52,446 bases of DNA from Gammaproteobacteria bacterium (GTDB lineage: Bacteria; Pseudomonadota; Gammaproteobacteria; Arenicellales; Arenicellaceae): assembly GCA_017854775.1 (NCBI GenBank), contig JAFMHC010000009.1, forward strand, positions 1 to 52,446, written 5' to 3'. A program made the translations under genes and the position numbers. The notes under the pieces were generated by a model. It worked only from the letters and a program-made list of their open reading frames with translations, did no database searches and was not told where the DNA came from. Numbering within the stretch: the stretch's first letter is position 1; the number at the start of each line of letters is the position of its first letter. Of this stretch, positions 8,499 to 52,446 are shown piece after piece.

Positions 8499-8633
8499 GT
8501 TACGTTCGTTTTAGTTATCATTTGTCAATCACAACAATTGTACTATTAAGTTTTCATCAACGATACATCACTCGTGAAGCGTTACAATGGGTATGTAGTT
8601 TTATTAACACACTGGCATAAAGCAACATCGGCT

Positions 8634-9965: not shown

Positions 9966-10025
9966 GCCTTGCATTAGCCGCTTCACTAGGCGTTTCTTAC
10001 GATTCCTTTTTAACGCAAACTTGAC

Positions 10026-10892: not shown

Positions 10893-11104
10893 GATAGGCC
10901 CTAATTATTTGTGTGTTTGATTCGCGGCAAACTTATTGTTCTATATTTTACTTCACTATGTATAAGCTTAAATGCCGTTACTTAATGAAAATTTTTGCAA
11001 AATATACCACTCTCTCCTGCCGAATGCATCATAGAGGGCATTACCAGCAAGGCCTTGAACGATATTACATGAGCTGACATTGCACTAATAGATAGACTGT
11101 CAAA

Positions 11105-12340
11105 TTATGGGTAACTGGGTAACCAAGCAATAATCGTCAACAATTTAAGCGCAATAATTAACACCCCAAACAGCAACACCAACACCCACCGGCTCTGGCC
11201 GATGTGGCTGCCGGCTAGAGCCAGCTTACGATGCATCAGTGCCGGCACGATAAAGAAACTAAAGGCTACAAACATCCCCGCATAGGCAATCGACGAAACG
11301 AAGCCGTAGGGCGCAACAACGCTGGCGATTAGTGGTGGGCAGAATGCCAACGCGACGGATTGAGCACGACCCAGTCGGCTGGCATTAAAATTAAATCGGT
11401 CAGCGATGAAGTGAACCAAGCCCAGCCCGACACTTAGAAATGAGGTGATCACCGCAAAGTGTGAGAACCACGTAAGGCTGGCGTTAACCAGCCTAGTGCT
11501 GCTATCGCTCTGCAGCATCGACACTAAGGCACTCAAACCTCCGCCGTTAGCCGCAACATCAACAAACTCTGTTCTGGATATATTGCCTAAGGTCGTGGCT
11601 AACCAGATCACGTAAACCAGCATCGCCAACAATACGCCAAGTAAAACTGCTGAGCCGGTTCTGCCTGCCTGATTATTATAGTGGCTAGCCAAACTTGGCA
11701 CCAAACCGGCACAAGCAAAAGCAGTTACAAAAACAGGCAGCGCTGACCATAGGTAAGCAAGCTCACCGGTGTTGCTAGCCAGCAAAGTCGCTACCTCAAG
11801 CGAGCCGAGCAAGCCGGAATTCGCGGTCAAAAAGGCGCCGCACATCGCCACCATCAATACCGTGCTGAGACGACTAACAGTAGTAGTTCCAAACCAAATA
11901 GACAATCCGGCGATGCTGGCAAATATAAGGCTAAACAGCGGCCGTGGAAGCGCTTGGTCTTCAGCCAAAAGATGAGCGACACTGCTACTCATGATGCCTG
12001 CGCCGGCGGTGATATACGCGTACATCAAAATAAACATAATAAAGCCAATCGAGACATTATTGATGCTAGCCCATACGCCGCCTAATGAATCTCGTATAAG
12101 CGTGTCAAAACTACTGCCGAGCGGATATCTAACATTTACTTCAATTAGTAGTAAGGCTGATAGATAGGTAAACACGCAGACCGTCGCTAGGCCAATTACC
12201 GCCCAATAAAACCAGGCACCGGCGGAGACAAGTGGCAAAGCAAACATCCCTGCGCCTACCGCGCCTCCGGCAACCAAGATTACGCCATGCCATAGCGGTT
12301 TAGATTTTGCAGCAATCTGAGTGATATTATTCGATTTCAT
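11105..12340 (-). CDS. Aromatic amino acid permease (HAAAP family, TyrP/Mtr-like)
   Basis: Inner-membrane proton symporter of about 411 residues with some eleven hydrophobic segments. The N-terminal GGAVGAGMFALPLV is the hallmark first helix of the tyrosine/tryptophan permease family, and VNVRYPLGSSFDTL follows helix 2. It probably imports tryptophan or tyrosine; which one cannot be read from the sequence. The ATG at 12340 is taken as the start; a GTG at 12346 in the same frame is possible, and neither has a clear ribosome binding site. The gene diverges from the FMN riboswitch and ribH. Confidence 0.88.
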   Translation of the reverse strand: MKSNNITQIAAKSKPLWHGVILVAGGAVGAGMFALPLVSAGAWFYWAVIGLATVCVFTYLSALLLIEVNVRYPLGSSFDTLIRDSLGGVWASINNVSIGFIMFILMYAYITAGAGIMSSSVAHLLAEDQALPRPLFSLIFASIAGLSIWFGTTTVSRLSTVLMVAMCGAFLTANSGLLGSLEVATLLASNTGELAYLWSALPVFVTAFACAGLVPSLASHYNNQAGRTGSAVLLGVLLAMLVYVIWLATTLGNISRTEFVDVAANGGGLSALVSMLQSDSSTRLVNASLTWFSHFAVITSFLSVGLGLVHFIADRFNFNASRLGRAQSVALAFCPPLIASVVAPYGFVSSIAYAGMFVAFSFFIVPALMHRKLALAGSHIGQSRWVLVLLFGVLIIALKLLTIIAWLPSYP

Positions 12341-12469
12341 TGGCACAGCTTACACCGTTCAAGTCTCAGTTGGATAGCATCCCTTAAAGCAATTTAAGAA
12401 GCGCGGTTAAAGACCGCTATTTCGGCCGTATACTCCCGCCTAAGTTTTGACTATAATCGCCGCCCCGAT

Positions 12470-12649
12470 ACCTTTATCGGGGTTCTCAGGGCGGGGTGTA
12501 ATTCCCCACCGGCGGTAATCACAGAAGCCTCGCAAAAGAAGCTGATTGTGTAGCCCGCGGGCGCTTCTAGTGATTCATTTATTAGAAGGACAAGCAGACT
12601 TGGTGAGATTCCGAGGCCGACAGTTATAGTCTGGTTATGAGAATAAGGT
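12470..12649 (+). promoter_or_regulatory. FMN riboswitch (RFN element)
   Basis: All conserved RFN blocks are present in order: aGGGCGGGGTGtAATTCCCC with ACCGGCGGTAAT at about 12488-12520, AGCCCGCGGGCGC at 12553-12565, and gcagacttggtgagattccg followed by GGCCGACAGTTATAGTCTGG ending at 12634. The closing stem pairs TTCTCA (12483-12488) with TGAGAA (12638-12643), extended by ACCTT (12470-12474) with AAGGT (12645-12649). It lies 88 bp before the ribH start, so FMN should lower ribH expression. The expression platform lies in 12650-12737; no obvious intrinsic terminator is there, which points to control of translation. Confidence 0.95.
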
Positions 12650-12737
12650 GGAGACTGTTTCGCTTCGTGCACCCGCGCGTACCGTTTTCGTCACCCCTTG
12701 TTTGCCCTCAATTTATTATTCAGATTGAGTTAACACT

Positions 12738-13196
12738 ATGACAAAACCTTCTTTAGATTCAAAACGAATCGCCTTTATTCAAGCCTGTTGGCATAGAGAT
12801 ATTGTCGATCAATTACGCGATTCCTTTGCTACTGAGTTCGCCAGCTTGAGCAATCTCACCATTGATTTCTTCGAATTACCGGGTGCTTATGAAATCCCAT
12901 TACACGCTAAGACCTTAGCCGAAACCGGCAAGTATGCTGGCATTGTTGCCGCCGGATTGGTTGTTGATGGCGGTATTTATCGGCACGACTTCGTTGCGTC
13001 TACAGTGATCGACGGTTTAATGCGTGCGCAAATGGACACGGGTGTCCCAGTCTTTTCGGCCGTACTTACACCGCATCATTTTCACGCTGGCGACGAACAC
13101 AGCACGTTTTTCAAAGAGCATTTTGTCAAGAAGGGCAAAGAAGCGGCTCACGCTTGCGTACAAACAATTTCCAGCCTCGAGGCAATTTCGCATTAA
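12738..13196 (+). CDS. ribH: 6,7-dimethyl-8-ribityllumazine synthase, RibH2 type
   Basis: Condenses 5-amino-6-ribitylaminouracil with 3,4-dihydroxybutanone phosphate, the penultimate step of riboflavin synthesis. The 152 residues carry FIQACWHRDIVDQ, LPGAYEIPLHAKTLA, VVDGGIYRHDFVAS and LTPHHFH, blocks of the type-II lumazine synthase known best from Brucella and rhizobia, not of E. coli RibE. The upstream FMN riboswitch supports the call. No other rib gene is in the window, so this is probably an extra, riboswitch-controlled copy. A MITE-like element begins directly after the TAA at 13194-13196. The start is the ATG at 12738, with no strong ribosome binding site. Confidence 0.95.
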   Translation: MTKPSLDSKRIAFIQACWHRDIVDQLRDSFATEFASLSNLTIDFFELPGAYEIPLHAKTLAETGKYAGIVAAGLVVDGGIYRHDFVASTVIDGLMRAQMDTGVPVFSAVLTPHHFHAGDEHSTFFKEHFVKKGKEAAHACVQTISSLEAISH

Positions 13197-13359
13197 CCTA
13201 GAAACCTCAGTTGAACACGAAAAAGATGTGCAACTAATTGATGTGAATAAGGAATTCAGAAAATGTGAAGTCACCTTGTTGGTGATGAACACTTTTATGG
13301 ATTCCTTAGGCATATTAAGGAGTTGTGCAGACTTTCGTGTTTCGACTGAGGTTTCTAGG
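13197..13359. mobile_element. MITE-like 163-bp imperfect palindrome with 5-bp target duplication
   Basis: The left end cctagaaacctcagt (13197-13211) is the exact reverse complement of 13345-13359. The similarity of the two arms continues inwards with small gaps (CACGAAA, TAAGGAAT, GTGAAGTCACC against its partner) to a central TCACC-TTGTT-GGTGA hairpin at the exact midpoint (about 13278). It is flanked by the direct repeat ATTAA at 13192-13196 and 13360-13364. There is no transposase. The CCTAGA end and an AT-rich 5-bp duplication recall IS1380/ISEcp1-type ends, an inference only. Open frames crossing this palindrome on both strands are taken as by-products. Confidence 0.85.
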
Positions 13360-13559
13360 ATTAAGCCCCATCACACCTGACTAATAGGGTTGCGGAAAAT
13401 GGATCGCCCAGCCCTAGATCAATAGCACTGCCGGTGTAATTTTTATCGCGCTAAAAACGTTGCTCTTGACCGGTTAATGAGAATAGTAGCCAAAACAGAT
13501 TGAATTTTAGCGCGAACAACGCACAATCGTTGACTTGCTAACTTACATGATTCGCCCCT
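13360..13559. other. Gene-free spacer between the MITE and the AGCS symporter gene
   Basis: Together with the MITE this makes a 363-bp stretch without a gene. After the second ATTAA copy the only structure seen is a 10-bp inverted repeat, cgcgctaaaa at 13447-13456 and ttttagcgcg at 13505-13514, separated by 48 bp. It could be an operator pair or chance. No confident promoter was found. Confidence 0.4.
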
Positions 13560-14966
13560 ATGCTCGACACCACAATCGGCTTTATCAACAACATTCTATG
13601 GGGCGACTATAGCGTTTTAATTATTCTATTAGTGGTGGCCGGCGTCTGGTTTTCGGTCTCATTACGCTTAGTGCAATTCAAGCATTTTGGCCATATGTTT
13701 GCCCTCATTCGCAGTAGCACTAAATCAGATAGTCAGGGCATCAGTTCGTTTCAAGCTCTGTGTACAAGCCTTTCCGCGCGCGTTGGCACCGGCAACTTGG
13801 CGGGCGTTGCCATGGCCATATCGGTTGGCGGTGCAGGCGCGGTGTTCTGGATGTGGGTTATCGCCTTACTAGGCATGGCAACCGGTTTCGCCGAGAGCTT
13901 ATTAGCGCAGGTCTACAAAGTGCGCGACCATAACAGCGAGTTTCGAGGTGGCCCAGCGTATTATATTCAGCAAGGCCTCGGCATAAAATGGCTTGCGGTG
14001 CTGTTCTCTATTTGCTTGTTTCTTGGCTACGGTCTGTTTTTCAGTGCCATGCAGGCCAACACCATTACTGATGCTTTAAACAACGCCTATCAAATTCCAA
14101 CGCTGTATTCTGGCTTAGTAATTACCGTTCTCGCGGGTGCCATTGTGATCGGGGGCTTACGCACCATTGCCCGTTTCGCTGAATTGGTAGTGCCATTCAT
14201 GGGCGTCGCTTATATTCTTACCGCACTGGGTATAACCATCTTCAATATCGCCGCCGTGCCGGATATGCTGATTGATATTGTTAGCTCAGCTTTCGGTTTG
14301 CAAGAAGCTGGCGCTGGTGCCTTGGGTGCCGCCTTAAAGGCCGGTATCCAACGTGGGCTTTATTCCAATGAAGCTGGCTCTGGCAGCGCACCGCATGCAG
14401 CCGCCAGTGCCTCACCAAACCCAAACCACCCAGCTACACAAGGCTATATTCAAATGCTTGGGGTGTTCTTCGACACTATTATTCTTTGCACCTGTACGGC
14501 AGTAATTATTTTACTTGCCGGCGACATCCCAGCCGGCGAGATGACAGGCATACGGCTAACCCAAGATGCGATGACTCAGCATGTTGGCAACTCAGGCTTA
14601 CACTTCGTCTCTATCGCGATCACCTTATTTGCCTTTACCTCGGTGGTGGCTAATTATGCCTATGCACAAAGTAATCTGAGAATTTTTGGCATTGATAACA
14701 AGTGGGGTAATGGCGCCTACACGATAGCCTACCTGTCGATGGTATTATGGGGTTCTGGGGCTCGTTTAGACGCAGTATGGAGCGCCGCCGATATGGCTCT
14801 TGGACTTATGACCTTAGTCAATGTAATCGCGTTAATACTCTTAACGCCCACCATCGTGGCGGTCAGCAGAGACTACTTTGCGAAACATGAAAGTGGCCGG
14901 GAGATGGCCTTTAAAAAAGGCGATTGCGCCATACAGGGAAAAACTGAAGACAACATTTGGGACTAA
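13560..14966 (+). CDS. Sodium:alanine symporter family protein (AGCS)
   Basis: 468 residues with about ten hydrophobic segments. Family signatures are SLSARVGTGNLAGVAMAISV early in the protein, FRGGPAYYIQQGLG, and GLYSNEAGSGSAPHAAA in the second half. These proteins import alanine or glycine with Na+. The first membrane segment is preceded by LDTTIGFINNILWGDYS, typical for the family. The ATG at 13560 is used; no clear ribosome binding site is visible. Isolated gene on the plus strand. Confidence 0.93.
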   Translation: MLDTTIGFINNILWGDYSVLIILLVVAGVWFSVSLRLVQFKHFGHMFALIRSSTKSDSQGISSFQALCTSLSARVGTGNLAGVAMAISVGGAGAVFWMWVIALLGMATGFAESLLAQVYKVRDHNSEFRGGPAYYIQQGLGIKWLAVLFSICLFLGYGLFFSAMQANTITDALNNAYQIPTLYSGLVITVLAGAIVIGGLRTIARFAELVVPFMGVAYILTALGITIFNIAAVPDMLIDIVSSAFGLQEAGAGALGAALKAGIQRGLYSNEAGSGSAPHAAASASPNPNHPATQGYIQMLGVFFDTIILCTCTAVIILLAGDIPAGEMTGIRLTQDAMTQHVGNSGLHFVSIAITLFAFTSVVANYAYAQSNLRIFGIDNKWGNGAYTIAYLSMVLWGSGARLDAVWSAADMALGLMTLVNVIALILLTPTIVAVSRDYFAKHESGREMAFKKGDCAIQGKTEDNIWD

Positions 14967-15222
14967 TTCTTAGAGACCTCTGCTACTGTCGGCTTAAATC
15001 AATCACCAGGCCAGAGTATAAAAGCTAGGTGTCTAATATTTAGAGATTGCCGTAAAATCATCGGTAACTCTTAGTTAGTAACTCGATCTTTTGCTGAAGT
15101 TATACTTAGGTCTCTGTATAGTGAGCCTTTCAGATAATCAATTTCACTAGTACGAAAGCGCCACTTTGGTCTATTTCTCTTGACGCAAATCATTATCCGA
15201 CAGACCCATAGTTCAAATTCCA

Positions 15223-16104
15223 ATGAAAGCACTATTACTTGCAGTAAGTTTACTATCCATGATCGAAGCTAATCCCGCTGATGCTATCGAAGTACAAGGC
15301 CACCGTGGCGCCAGAGCCGTGCTGCCCGAGAACTCCTTACCAGCGCTGAAATACGCCTTAGAATTGGGCGTCGACACGCTCGAGTTTGATATGGGGGTGA
15401 GCAAGGACGGTGTTGTAGTGGTACTGCACGATCAAAAAATAAACCCTGTGATCTGTCAATACAAAGATGGCTCTGCGATAGAGTCGGATTTGTGGGTACA
15501 TGAACTTAGCCTAGAACAGATAAAGCAGTTTGACTGCGGAAGCAAGAAGAACCCTAGATTTGAGCGCCAAGTGACCGTTGCTGGCACTGAGATTCCGACC
15601 CTAGCAGAAGTGTTTGAAATGGTTGCTAACTCAGGACTGGCAAACGCAAAAACCGTGGCCTTTAATATCGAGACCAAAAGCGACCCTAGTACGCCGCACG
15701 CTCAACCCGCCGCTGAAGATTTCGTCGAAGCAGTGCTAAAAGTAGTGCAGCAATATGGTTTAGCGTCTCGCGTTACCCTTCAGTCTTTCGACCCAGCAAC
15801 CTTAATCGCGGCTAATGAAATTGCCCCCGACTTACAGCTTGCAGCGTTATTTAAAGACAAACCTGAAGATTGGTTGGCAGCGGCCGAATCGGTTGGCGCT
15901 GACATCATTTCACCACATCATTCATTACTTGGTCGCCGCGACGTAGAGCAAATTCAAGATGCGGGTCTGGGAGTCATTCCGTGGACCGCTAACAGTAAAC
16001 GACAATGGGCGCGGCTTATAAGGCTAGGGGTCGATGGCATAATTACCGACGACCCAGAAGCACTACTCAAGTATTTAGAACGTCTGCCCTCGGACAAGCC
16101 ATAA
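15223..16104 (+). CDS. Glycerophosphodiester phosphodiesterase, periplasmic
   Basis: Hydrolyses glycerophosphodiesters to glycerol 3-phosphate and an alcohol. A signal peptide of about 21 residues (MKALLLAVSLLSMIEANPADA) is followed by the GDPD core: VQGHRGARAVLPENSLPAL with the catalytic His and Arg, LEFDMGVSKDGVVVVLHD with the Glu-x-Asp metal ligands and second His, and PWTANSKRQWARLIRLGVDGIITDDP at the C-terminus. At 293 residues it resembles the periplasmic, GlpQ-like side of the family but is shorter. The ATG at 15223 fits the signal peptide. A 256-bp spacer before it shows nothing recognisable. Confidence 0.92.
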   Translation: MKALLLAVSLLSMIEANPADAIEVQGHRGARAVLPENSLPALKYALELGVDTLEFDMGVSKDGVVVVLHDQKINPVICQYKDGSAIESDLWVHELSLEQIKQFDCGSKKNPRFERQVTVAGTEIPTLAEVFEMVANSGLANAKTVAFNIETKSDPSTPHAQPAAEDFVEAVLKVVQQYGLASRVTLQSFDPATLIAANEIAPDLQLAALFKDKPEDWLAAAESVGADIISPHHSLLGRRDVEQIQDAGLGVIPWTANSKRQWARLIRLGVDGIITDDPEALLKYLERLPSDKP

Positions 16105-16182: not shown

Positions 16183-17431
16183 TCAGAACACCTATCACAC
16201 TCGCAGTCATGCAAGTGGCTAAGGTGCCACTGACAATGCTTAGCAAACCCAGACGAGTGATTTCATCTCGACGCTCCGGTGCCATCGCTGAGAGCCCGCC
16301 AATTAAGATACCCAAACTGCCAAAGTTAGCAAATCCGCAAAGCGCATAGGTCAGGATTAAATCACTGCGAGGGCTAAGCGCTTCAGGTGGTAATTGACTC
16401 TGTTGAATAAACGCCAAGAATTCGTTAAAGATGGTTTTTACGCCCATTAGCGTACCAGCCGTGGTTGCTTGTTCCCATGGAATGCCCATCAACCAGCATA
16501 GCGGAGCCATAACCCAGCCAAGCACACGCTCAAGAGAAATCGGCAGGCCGAGGTAGTCGGGGAACAAACCAAGGCCTAAATTGGTCAGTGTCACTAGCGC
16601 AATAAAGGTGATTATCAAAGCCAGAATACCAAGCATCATCTGCATAGCACTAACCGCACCTTGAGATATTGCGTCCATTGGGCCACTGTAATCAAAAGCG
16701 ACTTCAGCATCCGACGGAGTTGGCCGGCCTTGTTGCGGAACCATGGTCAGCGAAATCATCACCGCCGCTGGCACGCTCATGATAGACGCGGTTAAAATAT
16801 GCCCGACGGCATCATCGATCACCTGATTTAGAAACGTTGAGTATAAAACCAACACCGTACCGGCGACCGTCGACATACCCAGCGTCATCACTAGGAATAA
16901 TTCGGAATAACTCAATTTTTTAATACTGTTGCGAATAAACAACGGCGCTTCGACCATACCAATAAAGATATTGGCCGCACCGGACAAGGCGACTGCGCCG
17001 CCTATATTCAGTGTTTTAGTGAAGATTTTTGCCAAACCTTCGATAATGAACGGCAGAATGCGCCAATGAGATAATAGAGCCGTTAATGCCCCAATAACAA
17101 TAATCAGGGGAAATGCCTGAAACGCTAAAATATAGCTAGAGCCCGGTTGCAGCTCAGCGAATGGCAAATCGCCTCCGCCCAAATAACCAAACACAAAACT
17201 TGTTCCGGCATTGGTTGCCGCTTGCAATGCTAGAACGGCTTGGTTCATGGCTGAAAACATGGACTGGAACAAAGGCACCTTCAAAAACACCAGTGCCAGC
17301 ACTACTTGCAAGCCAACAACCAATAGCCAAAGGCGAAAGTTGAAGCGCTTGGGGCCTTTGCAGAACAGCATGGCGATCAGCGGAAAAGCGATCAAACCGA
17401 GCGCACTTTGTAAATTAGGCAGGAATTCCAT
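16172..17431 (-). CDS. Concentrative nucleoside transporter (NupC/CNT family)
   Basis: Inner-membrane nucleoside importer driven by H+ or Na+. The 419 residues show the family's order of segments: an N-terminal three-helix region, then FVFGYLGGGD, QAFPLIIVIGALTALL, SGAANIFIGMVEAPLFIR (substrate-site block with the conserved Glu) and ALCGFANFGSLGI near the C-terminus. The length is normal (E. coli NupC 400). The start ATG at 17431 gives the complete first helix. Monocistronic; its last codons lie in a short degenerate repeat. Confidence 0.93.
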   Translation of the reverse strand: MEFLPNLQSALGLIAFPLIAMLFCKGPKRFNFRLWLLVVGLQVVLALVFLKVPLFQSMFSAMNQAVLALQAATNAGTSFVFGYLGGGDLPFAELQPGSSYILAFQAFPLIIVIGALTALLSHWRILPFIIEGLAKIFTKTLNIGGAVALSGAANIFIGMVEAPLFIRNSIKKLSYSELFLVMTLGMSTVAGTVLVLYSTFLNQVIDDAVGHILTASIMSVPAAVMISLTMVPQQGRPTPSDAEVAFDYSGPMDAISQGAVSAMQMMLGILALIITFIALVTLTNLGLGLFPDYLGLPISLERVLGWVMAPLCWLMGIPWEQATTAGTLMGVKTIFNEFLAFIQQSQLPPEALSPRSDLILTYALCGFANFGSLGILIGGLSAMAPERRDEITRLGLLSIVSGTLATCMTASVIGVLTMA

Positions 17432-17737
17432 GAAAGTTCGAGGGGGTTATTTGATAACGCTCATGACTTTACTGGTTCTGACCACAACGAACAAGCATTA
17501 AACCAGCCTTAAAATAGTCATATTGAGCGGAAATTAAACAAAAATATCCAACGTGGTTAAAAAAATACCGAGAATTGAACTTTATATGTGGACGAACTGT
17601 CACGCTTTTGCAACACTCCCGTTGTATAAAACATACAATTAACGCCCACGTTAAGAATTAGTCATGTTCGGTATGAAAATTGCCGGATTTTCTCACAATA
17701 ATCGCAGAATCGGATTACCGTCCGGGGGTATAACACC
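17432..17737. promoter_or_regulatory. Divergent control region between the nucleoside transporter and the TonB-dependent receptor
   Basis: 306 bp without a gene, serving two divergent genes. The clearest structure is an inverted repeat TTGTAT-AAAAC-ATACAA (17622-17638), about 100 bp before the receptor ATG, which is a candidate operator. No Fur-like box or good sigma-70 pair was recognised. A G-rich ribosome binding region (cgggggtat) lies about 10 bp before the receptor start. Confidence 0.4.
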
Positions 17738-20700
17738 ATGCCGCGAAACTTTGCTCATGGCTTGCTAAAAGCCACTACTATGTTAATGCTGGGTCTTTTC
17801 TCAGCTGCAGTACTAGCACAATCCACTACCTCGTCAATTCGAGGCAAGCTTCTCGACACAGCAGGCAACCCTGTTGCCAATGCTGAAGTTGTCGTGACCG
17901 ACCAACGAACTGGCTCGCAACGTCGCGTAAGCTCAAATAACAGCGGTACTTTTTTCGCCTCGAACCTGCAAGTTGGTGGCCCATTCGTCATATCGGTAGA
18001 CAACGTTGATTCCGCTATCGTAGAAAACATCGCTCTTGGCGATGCTTACCAACTTACCATCGAAAATGTCGGCGCTGTTGCCGATAGCTCTCTTGAGGAA
18101 GTGGTCGTTACTGGCAAGGCCGTTGTCTCTGACATATCGTCTGGCCCATCAGCGGTTTTCTCACAAGACATTCTTGAGTCAGCGGTTGCTTTTAACCGTG
18201 ACATTAAAGATGTGTTCAGCAATGACCCGCGTATCAACCTAGATAACCCAGGTCGCGGTTCAGCGGTTAACTGTGGCGGTAAGAACCCACGCTTTAACAG
18301 CCTATCAATCGATGGCGTTGGTCAAAATGATCGCTTCGGTTTGAACGAAAACGGTTTTGCCTCATCAAATGGCCAGCCTTTCCCGTTTGATGCGCTATCG
18401 CAAATATCTGTTGAGCTTGCACCGTTTGACGTAACCGCTGGTGGTTTCTCAGCGTGTGCAATCAACGCTGTAACAAAGAGCGGTACAAACGAATTTCACG
18501 GTAATGCCGTTTACGAATACTCAAGTGACAGCTTTCGTGGCGATAGCTTTGAGTTTCGCGGTGAAAAAATCGATGTGGATAATAGTGACTTCACTGAAGA
18601 AACTATTGGCTTCACATTGGGTGGCCCAATTATTAAAGACAAGCTTTTCTTCTTCTTAGCCTATGAAGAATCAGAGCAACCGCAATTCAACGCCGCAGGG
18701 TTTAACGGCTCAGGCAACGGTGACGAGCGCGACTTCCTAAGCGAAGCTGATTTCAACCGTATTGTAGATATCGCAAACCGTGTATACGGTTACGACCCAG
18801 GTGGTCAGCCACAACAAGGTTCAAATGACCGTGATGCATTGATTGGCCGTTTAGATTGGGACATCAATGATGATCATCGTGCTACGTTTATCTACAACAA
18901 ATTCGAAGGCAGTGCGCAGCAAGGTTCCGACAACGATGATAACGAATTTGAATTTGCTAACCACTTCTACAACCGTGGCAGTGACTTAGAGACATCAATT
19001 TTACGCTTTAGCTCACAATGGACAGATAGCTTGTCGACTGAGCTCTTCTTAAGTCGTCAAGAGAACACCGCAATCCAACAGACTATTGGCGATCCTGAGT
19101 TTGGTGATTTCCAAATCAGCATTGGTCGTGACACTGTGTACCTTGGTGCTGATGACTCACGTCAATCAAATGGCTTAACCTACGATTCGAACTTAATCAA
19201 GTTCAACCTCCAATACCTTACTGGCAATCACATAATCACCGCTGGTTTTGAGCGTGACGAGTTGGATATTTTCAACTTGTTCGTACAACATTCACGTGGC
19301 GGCGAACTAGACTTCTTCGACGATTCAGGTTTTGGCGGCTTAAGTGGTATCGACAAATTCGAGTTGGGCCTGCCTAACCGTATCTACTACGGCAGTGGCG
19401 GCGTAACTAACGACCCGAATGATGCAGCGGCAAACTACACAATTACTCAAGAAACGCTATTACTTCAAGATGAGTACTACTTTGAAGACCTAGGCCTAAC
19501 GGTTGTTGGTGGATTGCGCTACGAGCGTTTCAGCAGTAACGATCGCCCCGTCTTCAACGCTGCGTTCACCGCTGAAAACGGCATTCGTAACGATGCAAAT
19601 ATTGATGGTGTAGACATTCTTCAACCGCGTATCGGCTTTACTTGGGATGCTAACGATTTCACCCGTGTTCGTGGTGGTCTTGGTATCTTCTCAGGCGGTA
19701 ACCCGAATGTTTGGATCTCTAATTCATACAGCAATGACGGCATTACTAACGTTCAGCAACGTCAGTCGTTCGATCAATCATTGTTTGATCTACCATTGTC
19801 AGGTGCTGGTCGACCAGGCTTCGATGTTCCTCAAGCCTTAGTAGATGCAGTAGCCGCGACAACACCAGAAGACGCTTCTACAACTCGTTTATCTTTAATT
19901 GATCCAAACTACGAGCAACCGAGTGAAATAAAATTTGCTCTTGGTGCGACAATCGATTTAAAAGACGAATACACATTAGATGCTGACCTTCTTTACTCAC
20001 AACAACGTGATTCAGCGATTTATGTTGATCTTGCTCAACGTGAAGTCGGCCGTACGGCTGCTGGTTCGCCAATCTTGCGTGCGGTTGTTGGTGATGAAAA
20101 TTTCATGCTAACCAACTCTAATGAAAAAGCTGACACATTGGTTCTGTCGTTAGGCTTATCGAAGGAGTACGAGAACGGCCTAAGCATGAGTCTTGGCTAT
20201 GCTTACACTGACGCTGAAGACATCAGCGGAATGAACTCATCGGTTGCTTTTTCTAACTTCAATAACTTGGCAACTAACGATGGTAACAACCTAACGGCTG
20301 GCACCAGTGAATACAATACGCCTCACCGTCTGACGTTCCGTTTAGGTTATGAAAATAACTTGATTGGCGACTTGATGACTCGTTTTTCTGTTTACGGTGT
20401 CTACAAAAATGGCCAAGCTACAAGCCTAACCATGAGTAATCAAGGCTTAGAAGACAACAGCTTTGGCTCACGTCAATTGCTATACATACCAAGCGCCAAT
20501 GATGGCGCCGTTGTTTATGCAGACGGGTTTGATCGCCAAGGTTTTGACGAGCTTATTGCTAGCCGTAGCCTAGCTCGCGGTCAATTCGTAAGCCGTAACG
20601 ACGAGAACGCTCGTTCAAGCGCTCGTGTTGATTTACGTATCGACCAAGATCTTCCAATGATTGCTGGTGTTAAGCCAAAAGTCTTCTTGAAGATCAACAA

Positions 20701-46926: not shown

Positions 46927-48324
46927 TTGTATACATACAACTTGATTAGAATATATAAATCATTCATCTGCATCTTGATGGCGCTTTCAAGCGCAATGCT
47001 GCCAATTTTTTCGACCTCTGCGCAGCAAAATACCAGTTTCTCGCAGACGAGAACCAGTTTAATGCAGGCTTATTATGATGCCGTAGAAAATGACTCTACT
47101 TACCTCGCGTTGGTGGCCAATAAGCACCGTGATTTGACCAGTCTTGCTGAAGCTAAATCTTATCTATTACCCAGTGTCTCGGCTTTTGCCAATAGGCAAC
47201 AGGTTGAAGAATCTCTTACAGCACCACAATTGCCATTCGTCGTTCAAGGTTCTGCCAATTACAGCCGATTTGCCTACGGGCTTGAGTTTTCTCAGGTCAT
47301 ATTCAATCGCGAGTTGTTCGCCAGCTATAACGGCGCAAAGTTACAAGCATCAATAGACCAAATTGATCTACTCTCAATTCACGATGAACTGATTCTCAGA
47401 GTAGCCAATGCCTATTTCGGAATTCTCAGTGCTGAAGATGCGGCATTACTCGCGAGTGCTAATGTAGCCGCAACATCTGAACAACATGATTTGATTAGCG
47501 AGCAATTTAAAGCTGGGGCGGCGACCAATGCCGATTTGCAACTCTCAAAGGCAAGATGGTTACTTGCCGTTGCCGACCAGGCAATCGCGCAAAACCAGTA
47601 TCAAGTTTCTAAAACAGACCTTGCCTCTATCACCGGTAAAAAGTATCAGCAATTGCAACCGATTAAAGAACCTGAAAACCTGGTAGGCATGCTTGATAGC
47701 ACTAAAAGTCCTGATCTGGTGATTGAGGGTAACCTTGATTATATTCGTGCTAACCTGCGATCTGAAATCGCAAAACGAGAGCTGACAGCGGCGAAGGCCA
47801 AGCGATACCCAACAGTAGAGCTAGTGATGAATTATGGAGAAAATGACAACAACGGAAGCTTGGCAGGAGCTTCAAGCGAGAGCAGTAATTTTACCGCTAT
47901 GCTCCAAGCGTCAATCCCAATTTTTCAAGGCGGGAGAAACAAGTCATCTATCTCGGCAGCCAAACATGGCCTCGAAGCAAAAAAGCAAGAATTAAAAGGT
48001 GCCAAAGTAAATGCAATTAGCAGTCACGCCACTTTAATTTCTGAAGTAAGAGCCCTTCATAGCCGAATACTCGCGTTGAACCTTGCCAGTGAAGCTAGCC
48101 AATTGGCATTGGACTCAAAAATCAAAATGTACCAAGCAGGAGTTGAAGACAACCTCAGCATTTTAGATGCACAACGTGATTTCTTTGAAACTCGGCTTGA
48201 TGAACGAAAATCATTTTATGAGTTCCTATCAAAATGGCTGGAATACCAAAATGTACTTGGATCCCTTACTGAGAAAAACCTTTCGCAGTTTGTTAGTACG
48301 CCCCCGAGCGAGCCGGCAAATTAG
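46927..48324 (+). CDS. TolC-family outer-membrane channel protein
   Basis: About 465 residues. A signal peptide is followed by two homologous halves rich in long helices: AYYDAVENDSTYLALVANKH opens the first, YGLEFSQVIFNRELF marks the beta-strand insertion, and AKAKRYPTVELVMNYG with LQASIPIFQGG is the same place in the second half. It should form the outer-membrane exit of a tripartite exporter or type I secretion system. The start is unclear: a TTG at 46927 gives a plausible positively charged signal peptide, while the first ATG (46978) leaves a signal without a basic end. It ends 9 bp from the end of the LanB-like gene, which runs towards it. Confidence 0.9.
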   Translation: MYTYNLIRIYKSFICILMALSSAMLPIFSTSAQQNTSFSQTRTSLMQAYYDAVENDSTYLALVANKHRDLTSLAEAKSYLLPSVSAFANRQQVEESLTAPQLPFVVQGSANYSRFAYGLEFSQVIFNRELFASYNGAKLQASIDQIDLLSIHDELILRVANAYFGILSAEDAALLASANVAATSEQHDLISEQFKAGAATNADLQLSKARWLLAVADQAIAQNQYQVSKTDLASITGKKYQQLQPIKEPENLVGMLDSTKSPDLVIEGNLDYIRANLRSEIAKRELTAAKAKRYPTVELVMNYGENDNNGSLAGASSESSNFTAMLQASIPIFQGGRNKSSISAAKHGLEAKKQELKGAKVNAISSHATLISEVRALHSRILALNLASEASQLALDSKIKMYQAGVEDNLSILDAQRDFFETRLDERKSFYEFLSKWLEYQNVLGSLTEKNLSQFVSTPPSEPAN

Positions 48325-48333
48325 GGCTATTCA

Positions 48334-50844
48334 TTATTCTGCTCTAATATTCATCTCAACCTGTAGCTCAGTCACATGTTTATCGCCATCGATATCCAAC
48401 CATAACTCCTCTGGGTTTGGGAGTGCTTCGGTAAGCGATAACCATTCATTATTACTCGCTAACTTTTCCATTAATGCCAAACTGAATGGATTTCCAATAT
48501 CGATCCATAATGGCTTACGTTCGGTTGCTAATGCGTTATGAGGCACGATACCCGCAGCACCTTGGAAATCTTCGAACGACTTAACGAAAAATAAGCTTGG
48601 TAAGTCTTTGTCAATGCAATCTCGTTTTACTGCCAGCATTTGATCAACGCCTTTTTCTGAAAACCAGTTCTCGAGTAAATAGTCAGATTTCACCCACCAA
48701 AACTCTCGGCTTAGTATTACATTTTCATTCACGATTCGCGGGTTATGGATAATACTTTGTTCGGATGACAAAACTGGTGGTCTAAAATTGGGTCTAGAAA
48801 GAGTAAATGGTTGGGTTAATAAAATCAGCGCATACGATATGCCCCACGCTGGTGTTGGAAAAGTTGATCCAGTGTAAACCAGTTTGAGCTCTTTATCGTG
48901 TTGATCAAATAAGCGTAAAAGACCCGATACAGGGTCATGCGTTAAGGTCAGAGAATCTATATCTATTAAGTCGATATTGTCAGTTGACTCTGATCGAAAT
49001 GGCCACGATATTGCACGCTTGGTCAGCTTTGGGTGTGCTTGGAGATCATTGCTATGCCCGTTAATAAGCAAATCAACCGGCTCAGCTGGCGCAGATAACT
49101 CATTAAGCCACTGAGTTAAACTGTCTTGTAAAAAACTTTTCTCACCGTTATCAGCAAAAGCGAAGCGGCTTGCCAACCATGCAGGGCGATCAAAGACTCT
49201 ATTTACGACGATCAACGGGGGGCCTTGCTCCTGCACCGCAAGCTGAATCTGTGCGGTCACACCAAATCGCGCACCACTGGGAGCGACGACTTCCCTTTGA
49301 TTTTTTTGTGCGGCTCCGTATTCAGTAATATCTACTAATTTTTCACCAACGTCAGTAAGGAAACCTGAAACGTCCGTACATATACCTGATTCTCCGAAGA
49401 ACTCTACGAAATGGTCGCGCAGACGCAGGTATTGTGGCGAGTAAATAACTTGCGTACTCAAAAAACTTTCTAAGCCAGAAAGTTGACTCAAATCCTCGCT
49501 CGCTATGTGTGCATTTCCTCCAGGGAACCAACAGTCCTCAAGAGCAGTATTGTGATAGCGCGGATATCGTGTAACCCCGAGTAACGCCAAAGCTTCATTT
49601 TCTAACTTGGCAATTTCTTTAACTTTATTTGCCCGCTGATCACTTTTATCGTAAGTGACCTCTTCGCAAATGTTAATCATTTCTGCTACGTGTTGACCAA
49701 CCAGCCTAACGGTTTCTAAGTTACTTTCCGCCATAAAATCTACCAAACCTAACTCTGGCATCGGATCAAATGTGTTGCTCAAAGGTGGAGACTCAAGTAG
49801 CCCTTTGCGAATGAACTTTTCCAAGAGCATATTGGCCTGATCTTCGCTAACGTCGACTTGCTCAACTAAGTAATCTATCCATTGCTGCCAATTGCCTGAG
49901 GACTCTTTAGCCATTAGAGCTTGAGTTAACTTGGCATTGAGCCGGTAGACTGCCATTCGAGACTCGGTCCAAGGGCGGCCTAACAACACCATATCTCTGT
50001 CACATAGAGCTGTAATTCTATGGTCATCGAGTAGTTTTACCGACGAGTTTAAATATATCAACGATTCGTTATGCCGTTGTATGAACAACATTGCATGTTT
50101 GAAAATCCTAAATGGAATTCCTCTATTAAGCCGTGTTCTAAGTTGATACTCGGGCTGAGATAAACTGAACCCCGCCTGCTTCGCGGTAGTTTTTTTATCG
50201 CTAAAGTCGATCGGTACCGCAGTCATTGACATAAAGCTCGAAAATGGACTGGTTTTGGCCGCCGCCCTGATAATATAGCCGAATAGCGACCGTTCAAAAT
50301 TATCCGGCTTAACTTTGGTTGGTAATTTTTTCTCTCGTTTTGCGTGTGCTGCAACACCAGCACTGGCAAATGACAGCGCTTTTTTGAAGGTCTCTTGCTT
50401 TAAAGGCTCCCTGAGCTCTTTGCGTAAATGGGTTTGCATTTCTTCGCTGTGGTACTTTCCAGCCTCAAGTAATGTTTGCTCCAAATGCTCGTGTGCTTCA
50501 CTCCATCGGCGCAATAAGTCGGCGTCCTCCGCCCCCAACAAGACCGTCAATTCCGCCATAAGGCATTGATCAATATTTGCCTTACGCCCATTGTGAATAT
50601 TGCGTTTCAATTTCAAAACCGACCTTCGCAAACCCACAGCATTGTCGTCTAACTTAGGAATAAGATTGAATAGCGCTTTGTCTAAACGGTCTCGACATTC
50701 GCTTATACACTCCTCAATCTTCAGAACCTCAGAGATACTTTTAGATGTTTTTGTCAAACTAAGGTTACGCATCGCCTGATAAGGCAGCCCTGCGATGCGC
50801 ACCAATGTAAAGGGCGCTAAAACACCTCGTAAATCATCACCCAT
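48334..50844 (-). CDS. LanB-type lantibiotic dehydratase glutamylation domain, stand-alone
   Basis: 836 residues. FERSLFGYIIRAAAKTSPFSSF (about 183-204) is the conserved N-terminal Arg/Ser block of the tRNA-Glu-dependent glutamylation domain of LanB enzymes. The C-terminal end carries NPRIVNENVILSREFWWV, KPLWIDIGNPFSLALMEKL and ALPNPEELWLDIDGDKHVTE, the normal last segments of that same domain. No SpaB_C elimination domain follows, so this is either half of a split dehydratase or a peptide aminoacyl-tRNA ligase (PEARL). The ATG at 50844 has a good ribosome binding site (aggaaag); a GTG at 50892 in frame is less likely. It lies 26 bp downstream of the PqqD-M50 gene, same strand. Confidence 0.85.
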   Translation of the reverse strand: MGDDLRGVLAPFTLVRIAGLPYQAMRNLSLTKTSKSISEVLKIEECISECRDRLDKALFNLIPKLDDNAVGLRRSVLKLKRNIHNGRKANIDQCLMAELTVLLGAEDADLLRRWSEAHEHLEQTLLEAGKYHSEEMQTHLRKELREPLKQETFKKALSFASAGVAAHAKREKKLPTKVKPDNFERSLFGYIIRAAAKTSPFSSFMSMTAVPIDFSDKKTTAKQAGFSLSQPEYQLRTRLNRGIPFRIFKHAMLFIQRHNESLIYLNSSVKLLDDHRITALCDRDMVLLGRPWTESRMAVYRLNAKLTQALMAKESSGNWQQWIDYLVEQVDVSEDQANMLLEKFIRKGLLESPPLSNTFDPMPELGLVDFMAESNLETVRLVGQHVAEMINICEEVTYDKSDQRANKVKEIAKLENEALALLGVTRYPRYHNTALEDCWFPGGNAHIASEDLSQLSGLESFLSTQVIYSPQYLRLRDHFVEFFGESGICTDVSGFLTDVGEKLVDITEYGAAQKNQREVVAPSGARFGVTAQIQLAVQEQGPPLIVVNRVFDRPAWLASRFAFADNGEKSFLQDSLTQWLNELSAPAEPVDLLINGHSNDLQAHPKLTKRAISWPFRSESTDNIDLIDIDSLTLTHDPVSGLLRLFDQHDKELKLVYTGSTFPTPAWGISYALILLTQPFTLSRPNFRPPVLSSEQSIIHNPRIVNENVILSREFWWVKSDYLLENWFSEKGVDQMLAVKRDCIDKDLPSLFFVKSFEDFQGAAGIVPHNALATERKPLWIDIGNPFSLALMEKLASNNEWLSLTEALPNPEELWLDIDGDKHVTELQVEMNIRAE

Positions 50845-50870
50845 GTGAATCTTTCCTATTAATTTATTTT

Positions 50871-51887
50871 TTATAAGACCCACCAATACCACATCGCAAC
50901 GATTCCCAATATTAGGTGCGCGAGGCAGGCTAAACGGTATATTCGAGTCGTATGCGTTGATGACATTGATGATGGCTTGGCTGATAGGGCCGATTTTCGT
51001 GCTAACTCATCTTCGAGCAAAGCCTCCAGCATATGACTGCCATCGCTTGCTGTAAAAAGGCTTGTATCAAGATAGACAAACAACATGCAAAGCACTAAAA
51101 GGTATGACCATGCGGCTAACTCGGCGGGGCTCAACCCCGGCGTCAGTATCATTACCCAAGCAGCAACACCGGCCGAACATAAATTCACGATAGGGCCAGC
51201 TGCAGGTATCCAGAAACGCTTAAATTTATCGTTAATACTGTACGCTTGGGTCGTCTCAATATAGGGGCCAGGTACTATCCAACCGTGCATGATAATGCCG
51301 GCTTCACCAACTTTTGCCCCGGCAAGGCGACATGTTATCGCATGTGCTGCCTCATGGATCGGAACAACAATTAAGGCAAAAGCCAAGAAGCCAAACAAGT
51401 TGAACTGCTCGGCCACTTTACTCGGGTGGAGCACGTCGCTCTGGGTGAAAAATGTAACTAAGCCTACGATAGCAGCGCTAATAACCGACACCAGTAAGCA
51501 CCAGCTTAGCATCGCAGGAATTCGTTGTATCACCCTAGCAGTAGCAGCCGCTGCTCGATCGGGGTAGAAAAGAATAAACCTAGGAACGCCCTTACTCTTT
51601 ACTTCAGCTTGATCACCAATTAATAGGTTGTTACGACTTAGTTGTGATAGGAATTTATCCAATGTTGGGCGAATATTAATCGCCGTCGGGTGACCTTTTT
51701 TCAATTGCGTGACCAAAGACTCGTAATCTGTGCCCTCTTCAATCTCAGGTATTAACGCTTCTGCACCTTTACTAACTCTAACCGTTGCGCCAATGTCGGG
51801 ACGCATTAAAATGAGCGTGTTGTCACGCCGAACGAATTCCACACGTGGTGATAACTTAACCAAATTTGCTTGCGTAGACTCAGGCAT
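50871..51887 (-). CDS. PqqD-like (RiPP recognition element) domain fused to M50 membrane metalloprotease
   Basis: 338 residues. Residues 1-95 (KLSPRVEFVRRDNTLILM, then IGATVRVSKGAEALI and LDKFLSQLSRNNLLI) match the winged-helix pattern of PqqD-like precursor-peptide binders. The rest is a polytopic membrane domain with the zinc site HEAAH (178-182) after VVPI and a third ligand in FTASDG (Asp282), as in site-2-protease/M50 families. In RiPP loci such proteins are proposed to bind the leader peptide and cleave or help export it. The ATG at 51887 overlaps the end of the nitroreductase gene by 8 bp; a TTG at 51914 would add nine residues. Confidence 0.82.
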   Translation of the reverse strand: MPESTQANLVKLSPRVEFVRRDNTLILMRPDIGATVRVSKGAEALIPEIEEGTDYESLVTQLKKGHPTAINIRPTLDKFLSQLSRNNLLIGDQAEVKSKGVPRFILFYPDRAAAATARVIQRIPAMLSWCLLVSVISAAIVGLVTFFTQSDVLHPSKVAEQFNLFGFLAFALIVVPIHEAAHAITCRLAGAKVGEAGIIMHGWIVPGPYIETTQAYSINDKFKRFWIPAAGPIVNLCSAGVAAWVMILTPGLSPAELAAWSYLLVLCMLFVYLDTSLFTASDGSHMLEALLEDELARKSALSAKPSSMSSTHTTRIYRLACLAHLILGIVAMWYWWVL

Positions 51888-52446
51888 ACACTGGGTAACC
51901 AAGTGAGCAAGCAACTATAGGGCAGTTAGTAAGTCGGTCGATGGCAAATAGGTCTCCCCAGGTCTCCTCATATATGCCGCCCCAGATGCAGCCTGAAACC
52001 TGGTAGCTTTGTGCGGCTAAAAATAAATTCGACATCAGGTAACCAGCACTCTGTATCAGAGCACGATATCCGCGGGCATTATGATTGACCAAGGTAGTTT
52101 CTATATTGCCAGTGACAAAAATAACCACAGGAGCATTAGCAAAACTCCGCTGTAACATTAATGACTCCAATTCGACGGCGTTAAGCCCTTCGCGCTGCAA
52201 TATTAGTTTGCCGTCTTCAACCTTATAGATTCCAGGCTGATACTCGTCGTCGCCTTGATTTACCGCAACCCAAAGCGTTAGATCTACGCTCAAACCACCA
52301 TGCGCAACAGACTTTAGCTGATGCAATTCTGTTGAAAGCTGAACCATCGCGCTAAGAACTGCAAAAGGAATTGCATTATTCGAAAAATGACGGATCGATC
52401 TCCGACTAAGCATAATTTGCTGCAAGCTTGGAACCTTAATATCTCT
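51880..52446 (-). CDS. SagB-type nitroreductase-family dehydrogenase, 5' end outside the window
   Basis: The frame is open to the window end (bases 52446-52426 give RDIKVPS in frame), so the TTG at 52425 is not a trusted start. Visible blocks are IMLSRRSIRHFSN, QPGIYKVEDGKLIL and NARGYRALIQSAGYLMSNLFLAAQSYQVSG, the pattern of SagB-type FMN dehydrogenases that oxidise azolines to azoles or carry out other oxidations on RiPP peptides. The usual GLYPLELYV block appears as GLSVDLTLWVAV, a diverged form. It is translationally coupled to the PqqD-M50 gene (8-bp overlap). Confidence 0.8.
   Translation of the reverse strand, partial: RDIKVPSLQQIMLSRRSIRHFSNNAIPFAVLSAMVQLSTELHQLKSVAHGGLSVDLTLWVAVNQGDDEYQPGIYKVEDGKLILQREGLNAVELESLMLQRSFANAPVVIFVTGNIETTLVNHNARGYRALIQSAGYLMSNLFLAAQSYQVSGCIWGGIYEETWGDLFAIDRLTNCPIVACSLGYPVYA

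What the first reader, a model, noticed from the sequence alone, without database searches (positions are those of the whole stretch)
48334..52446. RiPP biosynthetic operon with a stand-alone LanB glutamylation domain and an unusual partner set
Three coupled minus-strand genes encode a SagB-type dehydrogenase, a PqqD-M50 fusion and a LanB N-terminal domain without the SpaB_C elimination domain. Known class I lanthipeptide loci have full-length LanB plus LanC, LAP loci have YcaO plus SagB, and PEARL loci use stand-alone LanB-like ligases. This mix matches none of them exactly within the window. It could be a split-LanB dehydratase system or a PEARL-type pathway in which an amino acid is added to a scaffold peptide and then oxidised. 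A new subclass is possible.
Basis: partly seen in the sequence, partly recalled or inferred. Interest (0 to 1): 0.88.

Follow-up and report, generated by a model that had tools for sequence, protein, structure and literature searches.

The report
Cut-off goadsporin-like peptide gene cluster
The three genes are the cut-off tail of a larger cluster, rare but shared by scattered Gram-negative bacteria, that probably makes a small peptide decorated with azole rings, dehydrated serines and a sulfur-for-oxygen swap in its backbone.

Summary
The three genes are real, but the "unusual partner set" comes from the contig ending at 52446. Two further contigs of the same genome, C96 and C203, carry the missing part: a stand-alone SpaB_C elimination gene, an azoline-type YcaO, a ThiF-like partner, the first part of the dehydrogenase, a precursor peptide, a thioamidation set (YcaO, TfuA, MoaD/ThiS-like carrier, MoeB-rhodanese) and transporters. 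C96 and C203 share an exact 55-base end overlap; the C203-C249 join is inferred from one dehydrogenase split between them. All 17 own cluster genes have a counterpart in one locus of Paracoccus plasmid pAMI4, and 8 of 9 further loci share the six-gene core in the same order. The 852-aa protein is nearest to GodF and TbtB, glutamylation halves of split LanB dehydratases. Best reading: a goadsporin-like linear azole peptide with dehydro-residues and probably thioamide(s); no separate pyridine synthase was recognised. A PEARL pathway or new LanB class is not supported. TfuA clusters with split dehydratases were reported by genome mining (PMC8120280), so this is a new variant of a known kind.

The parts
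48334..50892 (-). Stand-alone LanB glutamylation-type protein (GodF/TbtB-like), 852 aa from GTG, 836 aa from the ATG at residue 17
   Evidence: GodF 9jhq and TbtB 6ec7 by sequence and by fold; 33-39% identical to nine homologues in Pseudomonadota clusters
50871..51914 (-). RRE (PqqD-like) domain fused to M50 intramembrane metalloprotease, 347 aa; likely leader-peptide binding and cleavage
   Evidence: PF02163 38.6 bits; daptide_HExxH similarity, 60.4 bits, far below its cut-off of 300; HExxH (H187, E188, H191) and SDG (D291) invariant in 10 of 10 aligned; PqqD above cut-off in 3 of 3 family relatives scanned; N-terminal fold weakly matches TbiB1/PqqD
51880..52446 (-). C-terminal nitroreductase domain of a two-domain SagB-type azoline dehydrogenase, cut by the contig end; the rest is on contig C203 (L014:1-1833, minus strand)
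   Evidence: PF00881 58.7 bits, TIGR03605 49 bits, below its cut-off of 78.4; C203 part TIGR03605 86.8 bits, above it; the two parts match one 780-aa Paracoccus protein

Best explanation
The window holds the 3' end of a RiPP cluster of the goadsporin / split-LanB kind. Proposed steps: (1) the ~56-aa precursor (leader ...LDLFAEELPEQVQLLSDC..., Ser/Gly-rich core with Cys) is bound by RRE domains (inferred). (2) YcaO (PQPFA end) with the ThiF-like partner cyclises Cys and some Ser of the core, and the two-domain SagB protein oxidises the rings to azoles (inferred from families). (3) The window LanB adds Glu from glutamyl-tRNA to Ser, and the separate SpaB_C protein eliminates it to give dehydroalanine (inferred from GodF/TbtB and NisB homology). 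(4) MoeB-rhodanese charges the MoaD/ThiS-like carrier (ends in GG) with sulfur; TfuA releases it to the second YcaO, which makes one or more backbone thioamides (inferred). (5) The RRE-M50 protease removes the leader and ABC transporters export the product (inferred). No separate pyridine synthase was recognised, so the product is probably linear. Shown here: gene content, order, conservation and the precursor family. No chemistry is shown.
For: Own genome: SpaB_C at C96:18659-19573 (PF14028 119.1 bits), YcaO across C96/C203, thioamidation-type YcaO and TfuA at C96:11353-13916, precursor at C96:14106-14276 (start chosen by me), MoaD and MoeB-rhodanese at C96:14495-15955. C96 and C203 share an exact 55-base end overlap across which YcaO reads as 446 aa. 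Each of the 17 own genes (18 pieces, SagB in two) best-matches its counterpart among the 17 genes I took from one pAMI4 stretch. Six-gene core SpaB_C-YcaO-E1-SagB-M50-LanB in the same order in 8 of 9 loci found. Precursor profile matched 9 of 10 genomes/records: those 8 plus pAMI4 (two of the nine, pAMI4 and L018's, were in the profile). TfuA: one gene in each of the 10 cluster-bearing genomes/records. LanB nearest to GodF and TbtB. SpaB_C profile matches LanB elimination domains MadB, MibB, NisB (6.2e-14, 8.1e-10, 3.4e-8). TfuA matches 6xp8 (3.7e-38); its YcaO is nearest to MJ1094 6pe3 (1.1e-32). The azoline-type YcaO ends PQPFA in 10 of 10, none of the seven TfuA-type YcaOs examined does; MoaD ends GG in 7 of 7 examined. 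Passages: YcaO and TfuA are needed for thioamidation, an archaeal TfuA hydrolyses thiocarboxylated ThiS (PMC8153245; PMC13063428).
Against: No sequence overlap joins C203 to C249; that join rests on the split SagB gene. The position of NisB Arg826 is Lys in all 10 aligned elimination proteins. With the single own SpaB_C sequence, PbtD (a pyridine synthase) is matched about as well as LanB elimination domains (MibB 3.8e-4, PbtD 3.4e-3, MadB 9.8e-3), and TsrE follows in the profile search (5.9e-3). The LanB is below the Pfam cut-off; the E1-like protein is just below its model's cut-off (35 vs 36.9 bits). The own precursor scores just above the cut-off of a thiopeptide precursor model (NF033482, 25.8 vs 25 bits; pAMI4 21.7, below), which could speak for a macrocycle. 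A cyclase too divergent for PF14028/TIGR03891 cannot be excluded. In the Lysobacterales MAG the precursor/MoaD/MoeB and the TfuA gene lie on contigs other than the core's, so linkage is not shown there. No expression or mass data.
Confidence: 0.78

Rival explanations
1. Thioamidated thiopeptide pathway: the same set, but the product is a pyridine-centred macrocycle, with the single SpaB_C protein acting (also) as the [4+2] cyclase or with an unrecognised cyclase.
For: The own precursor is just above the cut-off of the thiocillin-family precursor model. Thioamidated thiopeptides made with TfuA-YcaO are known (saalfelduracin, named in PMC8120280 section 13). The C-terminal part of the SpaB_C protein aligns to PbtD at 3.4e-3, and the profile also reaches TsrE (5.9e-3).
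Against: One TIGR03891 gene in 9 of 10 genomes/records searched (pAMI4 only as a plasmid); the tenth, Pseudoalteromonas rubra, has in addition a strong match inside a 1049-aa frame on another contig (probably a full LanB, not examined) and one weak sub-cut-off match. The pyridine-synthase model scores 16.9 of a required 325 bits. The SpaB_C profile returned no PbtD at E<=0.1. The His kept in the elimination family is Tyr in PbtD. The core lacks the regular Ser-Cys spacing of thiopeptides (my reading against recalled thiopeptide cores).
Confidence: 0.15
2. PEARL-type pathway: the LanB adds an amino acid to the peptide end and the product is then oxidised.
For: LanB without a fused elimination domain, beside an oxidoreductase gene.
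Against: A separate elimination-domain gene lies in the same conserved gene order in 10 of 10 clusters, the own one across contigs. Nearest solved relatives are GodF and TbtB. A YcaO/SagB azole set and a Ser/Cys-bearing precursor are present.
Confidence: 0.03
3. Class I lanthipeptide pathway with a split LanB and thioether rings.
For: Split LanB; one LANC-like gene in the genome (C174:14443-15270).
Against: The LANC-like gene lies on an unconnected contig; its 2.4-kb locus shows one other ORF region of at least 100 aa, and I saw no LanB there. No cyclase gene stands among the ORFs of the own cluster that I assigned or is listed in pAMI4's. YcaO/SagB enzymes are not part of lanthipeptide synthesis (recalled).
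Confidence: 0.02
4. Decayed or chimaeric locus: the three contigs do not belong together and the window genes are a remnant.
For: No overlap between C203 and C249; assembly in 381 contigs with 4.21% contamination.
Against: Exact 55-base C96-C203 overlap, SagB split at one place in the family alignment, one-to-one match to pAMI4, similar GC (C96 part 0.442, C203 0.459, C249 part 0.448); no stop codon inside the 18 translated pieces.
Confidence: 0.02

Closest known systems
Cluster on Paracoccus aminophilus JCM 7686 plasmid pAMI4 (NC_022049.1, 279.9-300.1 kb; no product known to me)
   Same: 17 of 17 own genes, proteins 30-54% identical; the leader stretch LDLFAEELPEQVQLLSDCLSS is identical
   Different: Own cluster has the HlyD-ABC-FtsX-YcaO-TfuA block upstream of the precursor instead of downstream of LanB; the core is shorter and has fewer Cys
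Goadsporin (split LanB GodF/GodG, azoles, linear; Streptomyces)
   Same: Split LanB, YcaO plus dehydrogenase, no cyclase recognised; GodF is the best sequence and fold match
   Different: TfuA/YcaO/MoaD/MoeB set, RRE-M50 protease gene, YcaO not fused (the fused goadsporin cyclodehydratase is in PMC4603692, passages), Gram-negative hosts. That goadsporin lacks the thioamidation set and the M50 gene is recalled.
Thiopeptides, including thioamidated ones (thiomuracin TbtB; saalfelduracin)
   Same: TbtB-like glutamylation protein; precursor near the thiocillin-family model cut-off; TfuA-YcaO in thioamidated members (PMC8120280 section 13)
   Different: No separate pyridine synthase recognised
TfuA-linked LAP-type clusters with split lanthipeptide dehydratases in PMC8120280 (section 13, Fig. 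5C legend)
   Same: Same combination of thioamidation, azole and split-dehydratase genes; TfuA clusters as a whole are mostly proteobacterial there
   Different: The paper says most of its LAP-type clusters have fused YcaO and cyclodehydratase domains; whether these genomes are in its tables was not checked (no supplement access)
Coryneazolisins (PMC4603692, passages)
   Same: Azole genes with lanthipeptide-like dehydratases and no [4+2] protein
   Different: Other hosts (recalled); no thioamidation set was mentioned in the passages seen

Membership tests
Goadsporin-like linear azole peptide with dehydro-residues | Separate glutamylation (LanB N) and elimination (SpaB_C) proteins | tested here: met
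   Window LanB vs GodF/TbtB; separate SpaB_C gene C96:18659-19573
Goadsporin-like linear azole peptide with dehydro-residues | YcaO cyclodehydratase with E1-like partner and SagB-type dehydrogenase | tested here: met
   YcaO PF02624 above cut-off; TIGR03604 190.7 bits on the C203 part alone, below the full-length cut-off 219; SagB TIGR03605 86.8 vs 78.4; E1-like partner only sub-cut-off, TIGR03882 35 vs 36.9; PQPFA ends
Goadsporin-like linear azole peptide with dehydro-residues | Precursor with Ser/Thr/Cys-rich core | tested here: met
   11 precursors in 10 clusters
Goadsporin-like linear azole peptide with dehydro-residues | Product with azoles and dehydroalanine | not testable with these tools
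   Needs mass spectrometry
Thiopeptide | Pyridine synthase (TbtD/TclM type) | tested here: not met
   One TIGR03891 gene in 9 of 10 genomes/records; NF045556 16.9 vs 325 bits; a very divergent cyclase, or a bifunctional SpaB_C protein, would escape
Thiopeptide | Thiopeptide precursor family | tested here: inconclusive
   NF033482 25.8 vs 25 bits (own), 21.7 (pAMI4)
Thioamidated RiPP (TfuA-YcaO) | Adjacent YcaO and TfuA genes | tested here: met
   C96:11353-13916; PF07812 152 vs 30 bits; NF033432 240.5 vs 235.2 bits; 6xp8 and 6pe3; adjacent pair seen in 9 of 10 clusters, TfuA gene in 10 of 10
Thioamidated RiPP (TfuA-YcaO) | Thioamide in the product | not testable with these tools
   Needs mass spectrometry
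PEARL (peptide aminoacyl-tRNA ligase) pathway | LanB-like ligase working without an elimination partner | tested here: not met
   Elimination-type gene in the same conserved gene order in 10 of 10 clusters
PEARL (peptide aminoacyl-tRNA ligase) pathway | Phylogenetic grouping with characterised PEARLs | not tested
   No PEARL reference sequence was at hand; at E<=0.001 the PDB searches returned only LanB-type dehydratase proteins
Class I lanthipeptide | LanC cyclase in the cluster | tested here: not met
   Only LANC-like match in the genome is on unconnected contig C174

The most novel reading that the evidence does not exclude
A rare, patchily spread family of Gram-negative clusters whose linear product carries azoles, dehydroalanines and backbone thioamide(s) on one conserved precursor family, with its own sulfur supply (MoaD/ThiS carrier, MoeB-rhodanese, TfuA) and an RRE-fused M50 leader protease. 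To my knowledge no characterised product combines these three modifications without a pyridine macrocycle.
Probability: 0.5. Interest if true: 0.65.

Novelty: new variant of a known kind. Interest (0 to 1): 0.5.

Why it matters
If right, Gram-negative bacteria make goadsporin-like peptides that also carry thioamides, with the sulfur-delivery genes in the same cluster. That gives a compact bacterial system for testing how TfuA, a ThiS-like carrier and a thioamide-forming YcaO work together, a question PMC8153245 names as open for bacterial RiPP TfuA proteins (passage). It also shows how a contig end can make an ordinary split-LanB set look like a new class.

Tried and rejected
PEARL, class I lanthipeptide and stand-alone new LanB class: rejected as above. 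Pfam and NCBIfam alone do not identify the LanB; PDB sequence and fold searches do. Nearby genomes do not help: besides the own genome no LanB relative in 60 near genomes, 368 drawn from the class and 397 drawn from the phylum (the samples overlap); in the family of Paracoccus onubensis G433, 2 of 295 matched, the centre itself and one weak hit, best E 8.4e-6. The first genome-contig scan with the single protein found no relative; the two-row alignment, by only two peptide patterns, found 9, so the list is not exhaustive. L023 (Acidobacteria) holds only weak LanB and YcaO matches in its locus, and no precursor match was found in its genome; I do not count it in the family. A TolC gene beside the LanB (46927-48324) was considered as part of the export machinery, but no TolC relative was found in 20 fetched stretches, so I left it out. 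The promoter/terminator scan round the precursor gave nothing usable. The fold model of M50 (pLDDT 70) gave RRE matches only at E 0.03, so it supports but does not prove the RRE.
Full report
WHAT IS IN THE WINDOW. Three overlapping minus-strand genes stand at the right edge: LanB-like 48334-50892, M50 50871-51914, nitroreductase 51880-52446 (open at the edge).

IDENTITY OF THE LanB PROTEIN. Pfam gives only a sub-threshold Lant_dehydr_N match (23.3 vs 28 bits) and NCBIfam none. Against solved structures it matches GodF (goadsporin; 4.5e-19) and TbtB (6ec7; 1.4e-14); a ten-row family profile gives 2.9e-47 and 1.5e-26. An AlphaFold model of modest confidence (pLDDT 64.8) finds GodF (3.7e-24), TbtB (1.0e-17 and 7.2e-17), then full LanB enzymes. 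Pfam lists no SpaB_C domain in this protein.

THE MISSING PART OF THE CLUSTER. Searching the same genome found one PF14028 (SpaB_C) gene, on C96, and three YcaO stretches, on C96 and C203. C96 (20,172 bases) and C203 (3,240 bases) share an exact 55-base end overlap; across it a 446-aa YcaO reads through. C203 ends inside a SagB-type gene and C249 begins inside one, without sequence overlap; the two parts match residues 4-549 and 605-772 of the same 780-aa Paracoccus protein, and in a family alignment the junction falls in a stretch of variable length, so few or no residues need be missing. This second join is inference. Order along C96: HlyD adaptor 7111-8151, ABC ATPase 8255-8968, two FtsX permeases 8965-11330, YcaO 11353-12594, TfuA 12591-13916, precursor 14106-14276 (start chosen by me), MoaD/ThiS-like 14495-14770, MoeB-rhodanese 14777-15955, ABC-2 transporter 16432-18590, SpaB_C 18659-19573, YcaO 19566-end. 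C203 adds the end of YcaO, a 218-aa ThiF-like protein and the first 611 aa of SagB. C249 adds the last 188 aa of SagB, M50 and LanB.

THE FAMILY OF CLUSTERS. tblastn against plasmids gave pAMI4 of Paracoccus aminophilus (34.3% over 97%; eight other records weaker). Compared with 17 genes that I took from that locus, each of the 17 own genes has its best match in its counterpart. A scan of genome contigs with a two-row LanB alignment gave nine loci. Eight (Gammaproteobacteria MAG PMG_192, Pseudoalteromonas rubra, a Lysobacterales MAG, a betaproteobacterial MAG, Paracoccus onubensis twice, Roseivivax twice) have SpaB_C-YcaO-E1-SagB-M50-LanB in the same order; the ninth, an Acidobacteria MAG, does not. 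A precursor profile matched 9 of the 10 genomes/records searched, missing only the Acidobacteria one (two of the nine had been in the profile). With the own precursor this makes 11 precursors in 10 clusters (PMG_192 has two). The leader stretch LDLFAEELPEQVQL stands in 10 of 11, the Lysobacterales one reading LDLFAEELPQQTQL. Nine cores resemble SSASSASCCTCTGSFGSVGSVISCG; the own and the Lysobacterales cores are different from these and alike (SSLGSVCGVSSIGSIVSSGESK and STALCIVCGASSLGSIVSSGESK). MoaD and MoeB genes were seen in 10 of 10 (the P. rubra MoaD match is weak, 2e-5; in one P. onubensis genome the precursor lies at the end of another contig, in the Lysobacterales MAG on another contig together with MoaD and a cut MoeB). 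The adjacent TfuA-YcaO pair was seen in 9 of 10 clusters; a TfuA gene is in 10 of 10 genomes/records, in the Lysobacterales MAG on a further contig. In a 13-row LanB tree the ten are set off from two actinobacterial and one Anoxybacillus LanB (the three outside rows have long branches). The family is rare: besides the own genome no LanB relative in samples of 61, 369 and 398 genomes (own included, samples overlapping), and one strong match, the centre itself, in 295.

HOW IT PROBABLY WORKS. The SpaB_C profile (nine family rows and one Anoxybacillus row; one P. onubensis row left out) matches elimination domains of MadB, MibB and NisB (6.2e-14, 8.1e-10, 3.4e-8) and, weakly, TsrE (5.9e-3). The single sequence matched MibB (3.8e-4) and PbtD (3.4e-3) about equally. 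By counting in the alignment, NisB Arg784 and Arg786 correspond to invariant Arg here, NisB Arg826 to invariant Lys; the C-terminal His before NRLG is invariant and is Tyr in PbtD. That such residues serve elimination is recalled, not tested. In ten genomes/records (pAMI4 as a plasmid only), nine hold one TIGR03891 gene; P. rubra also has a match in a 1049-aa frame and one sub-cut-off match. So no separate pyridine synthase is recognised. The YcaO next to SpaB_C ends in PQPFA in 10 of 10 (PxPxP in 8 of 10); none of the seven TfuA-type YcaOs examined does. The C203 half of SagB has the KYxxFx(Y/F)R motif, seen in 10 of 10 (its catalytic role is recalled). M50 keeps HExxH and SDG in 10 of 10, and its N-terminal domain is RRE-like. 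TfuA matches 6xp8 and its YcaO matches MJ1094; the MoaD protein ends in GG in 7 of 7 examined, and the MoeB protein has ThiF and rhodanese domains. A passage in PMC13063428 says that thioamide-forming YcaOs of organisms outside high-sulfide habitats tend to use a thiocarboxylated ThiS homologue and TfuA; PMC8153245 says the role is shown for an archaeal TfuA and still to be tested for bacterial RiPP ones. Together this predicts a linear peptide with azoles, dehydroalanine and thioamide(s). None of the chemistry is shown.

COMPARISON AND NOVELTY. PMC8120280 (passages and sections 11-13) reports TfuA clusters, most in Proteobacteria, including LAP-type ones with split lanthipeptide dehydratases and thiopeptide-type ones; MoeB and ThiS appear in its figure legends. 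The combination is therefore in print as a mined class. PMC10676384 (dehydrazoles) has azoles, dehydro-residues and in one cluster TfuA, but uses a LanM-type dehydratase. Ten full-text searches listed no paper that by title or abstract start deals with this cluster family or its product; the library lacks most subscription papers and I could not open supplements.

Noticed in passing
window 46927-48324 (+): TolC-family outer membrane protein gene, convergent with the LanB gene. It could complete a HlyD/FtsX-type exporter of the cluster, but no relative lies in the 20 fetched stretches checked.
   Followed up: partly
L012:20-6760 (+): Upstream of the cluster on C96: DUF6607, a 1494-aa CobN-like chelatase subunit, MotA/ExbB and DUF2149 genes; function of this set here not studied.
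   Followed up: no
L037:6239-13472: In Pseudoalteromonas rubra the precursor-MoaD-MoeB module lies beyond the HlyD end of the cluster, on the opposite strand to it.
   Followed up: no
L036:228-8324: Gammaproteobacteria MAG PMG_192 has two different precursors side by side, with the YcaO-TfuA and transporter block on the other strand upstream of them.
   Followed up: no
L018:769-957 and L004:4375-4560: A betaproteobacterial MAG and Paracoccus aminophilus have nearly the same precursor core although their LanB proteins are only 44% identical, which suggests selection on the product.
   Followed up: no
L012:12591-13916: TfuA here is 441 aa; only residues 3-211 match solved TfuA (217 aa), so about 230 C-terminal residues have no assigned function.
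   Followed up: partly
L049:1495-2379 (-): A LANC-like protein (PF05147, 123.5 bits) on C174, unconnected to this cluster, beside another large ORF that I did not identify.
   Followed up: partly
L005:9476-13404: Anoxybacillus plasmid: a PqqD-M50 protein directly before LanB, after a thiocillin-family precursor, so the M50-LanB pairing reaches Bacillota.
   Followed up: partly
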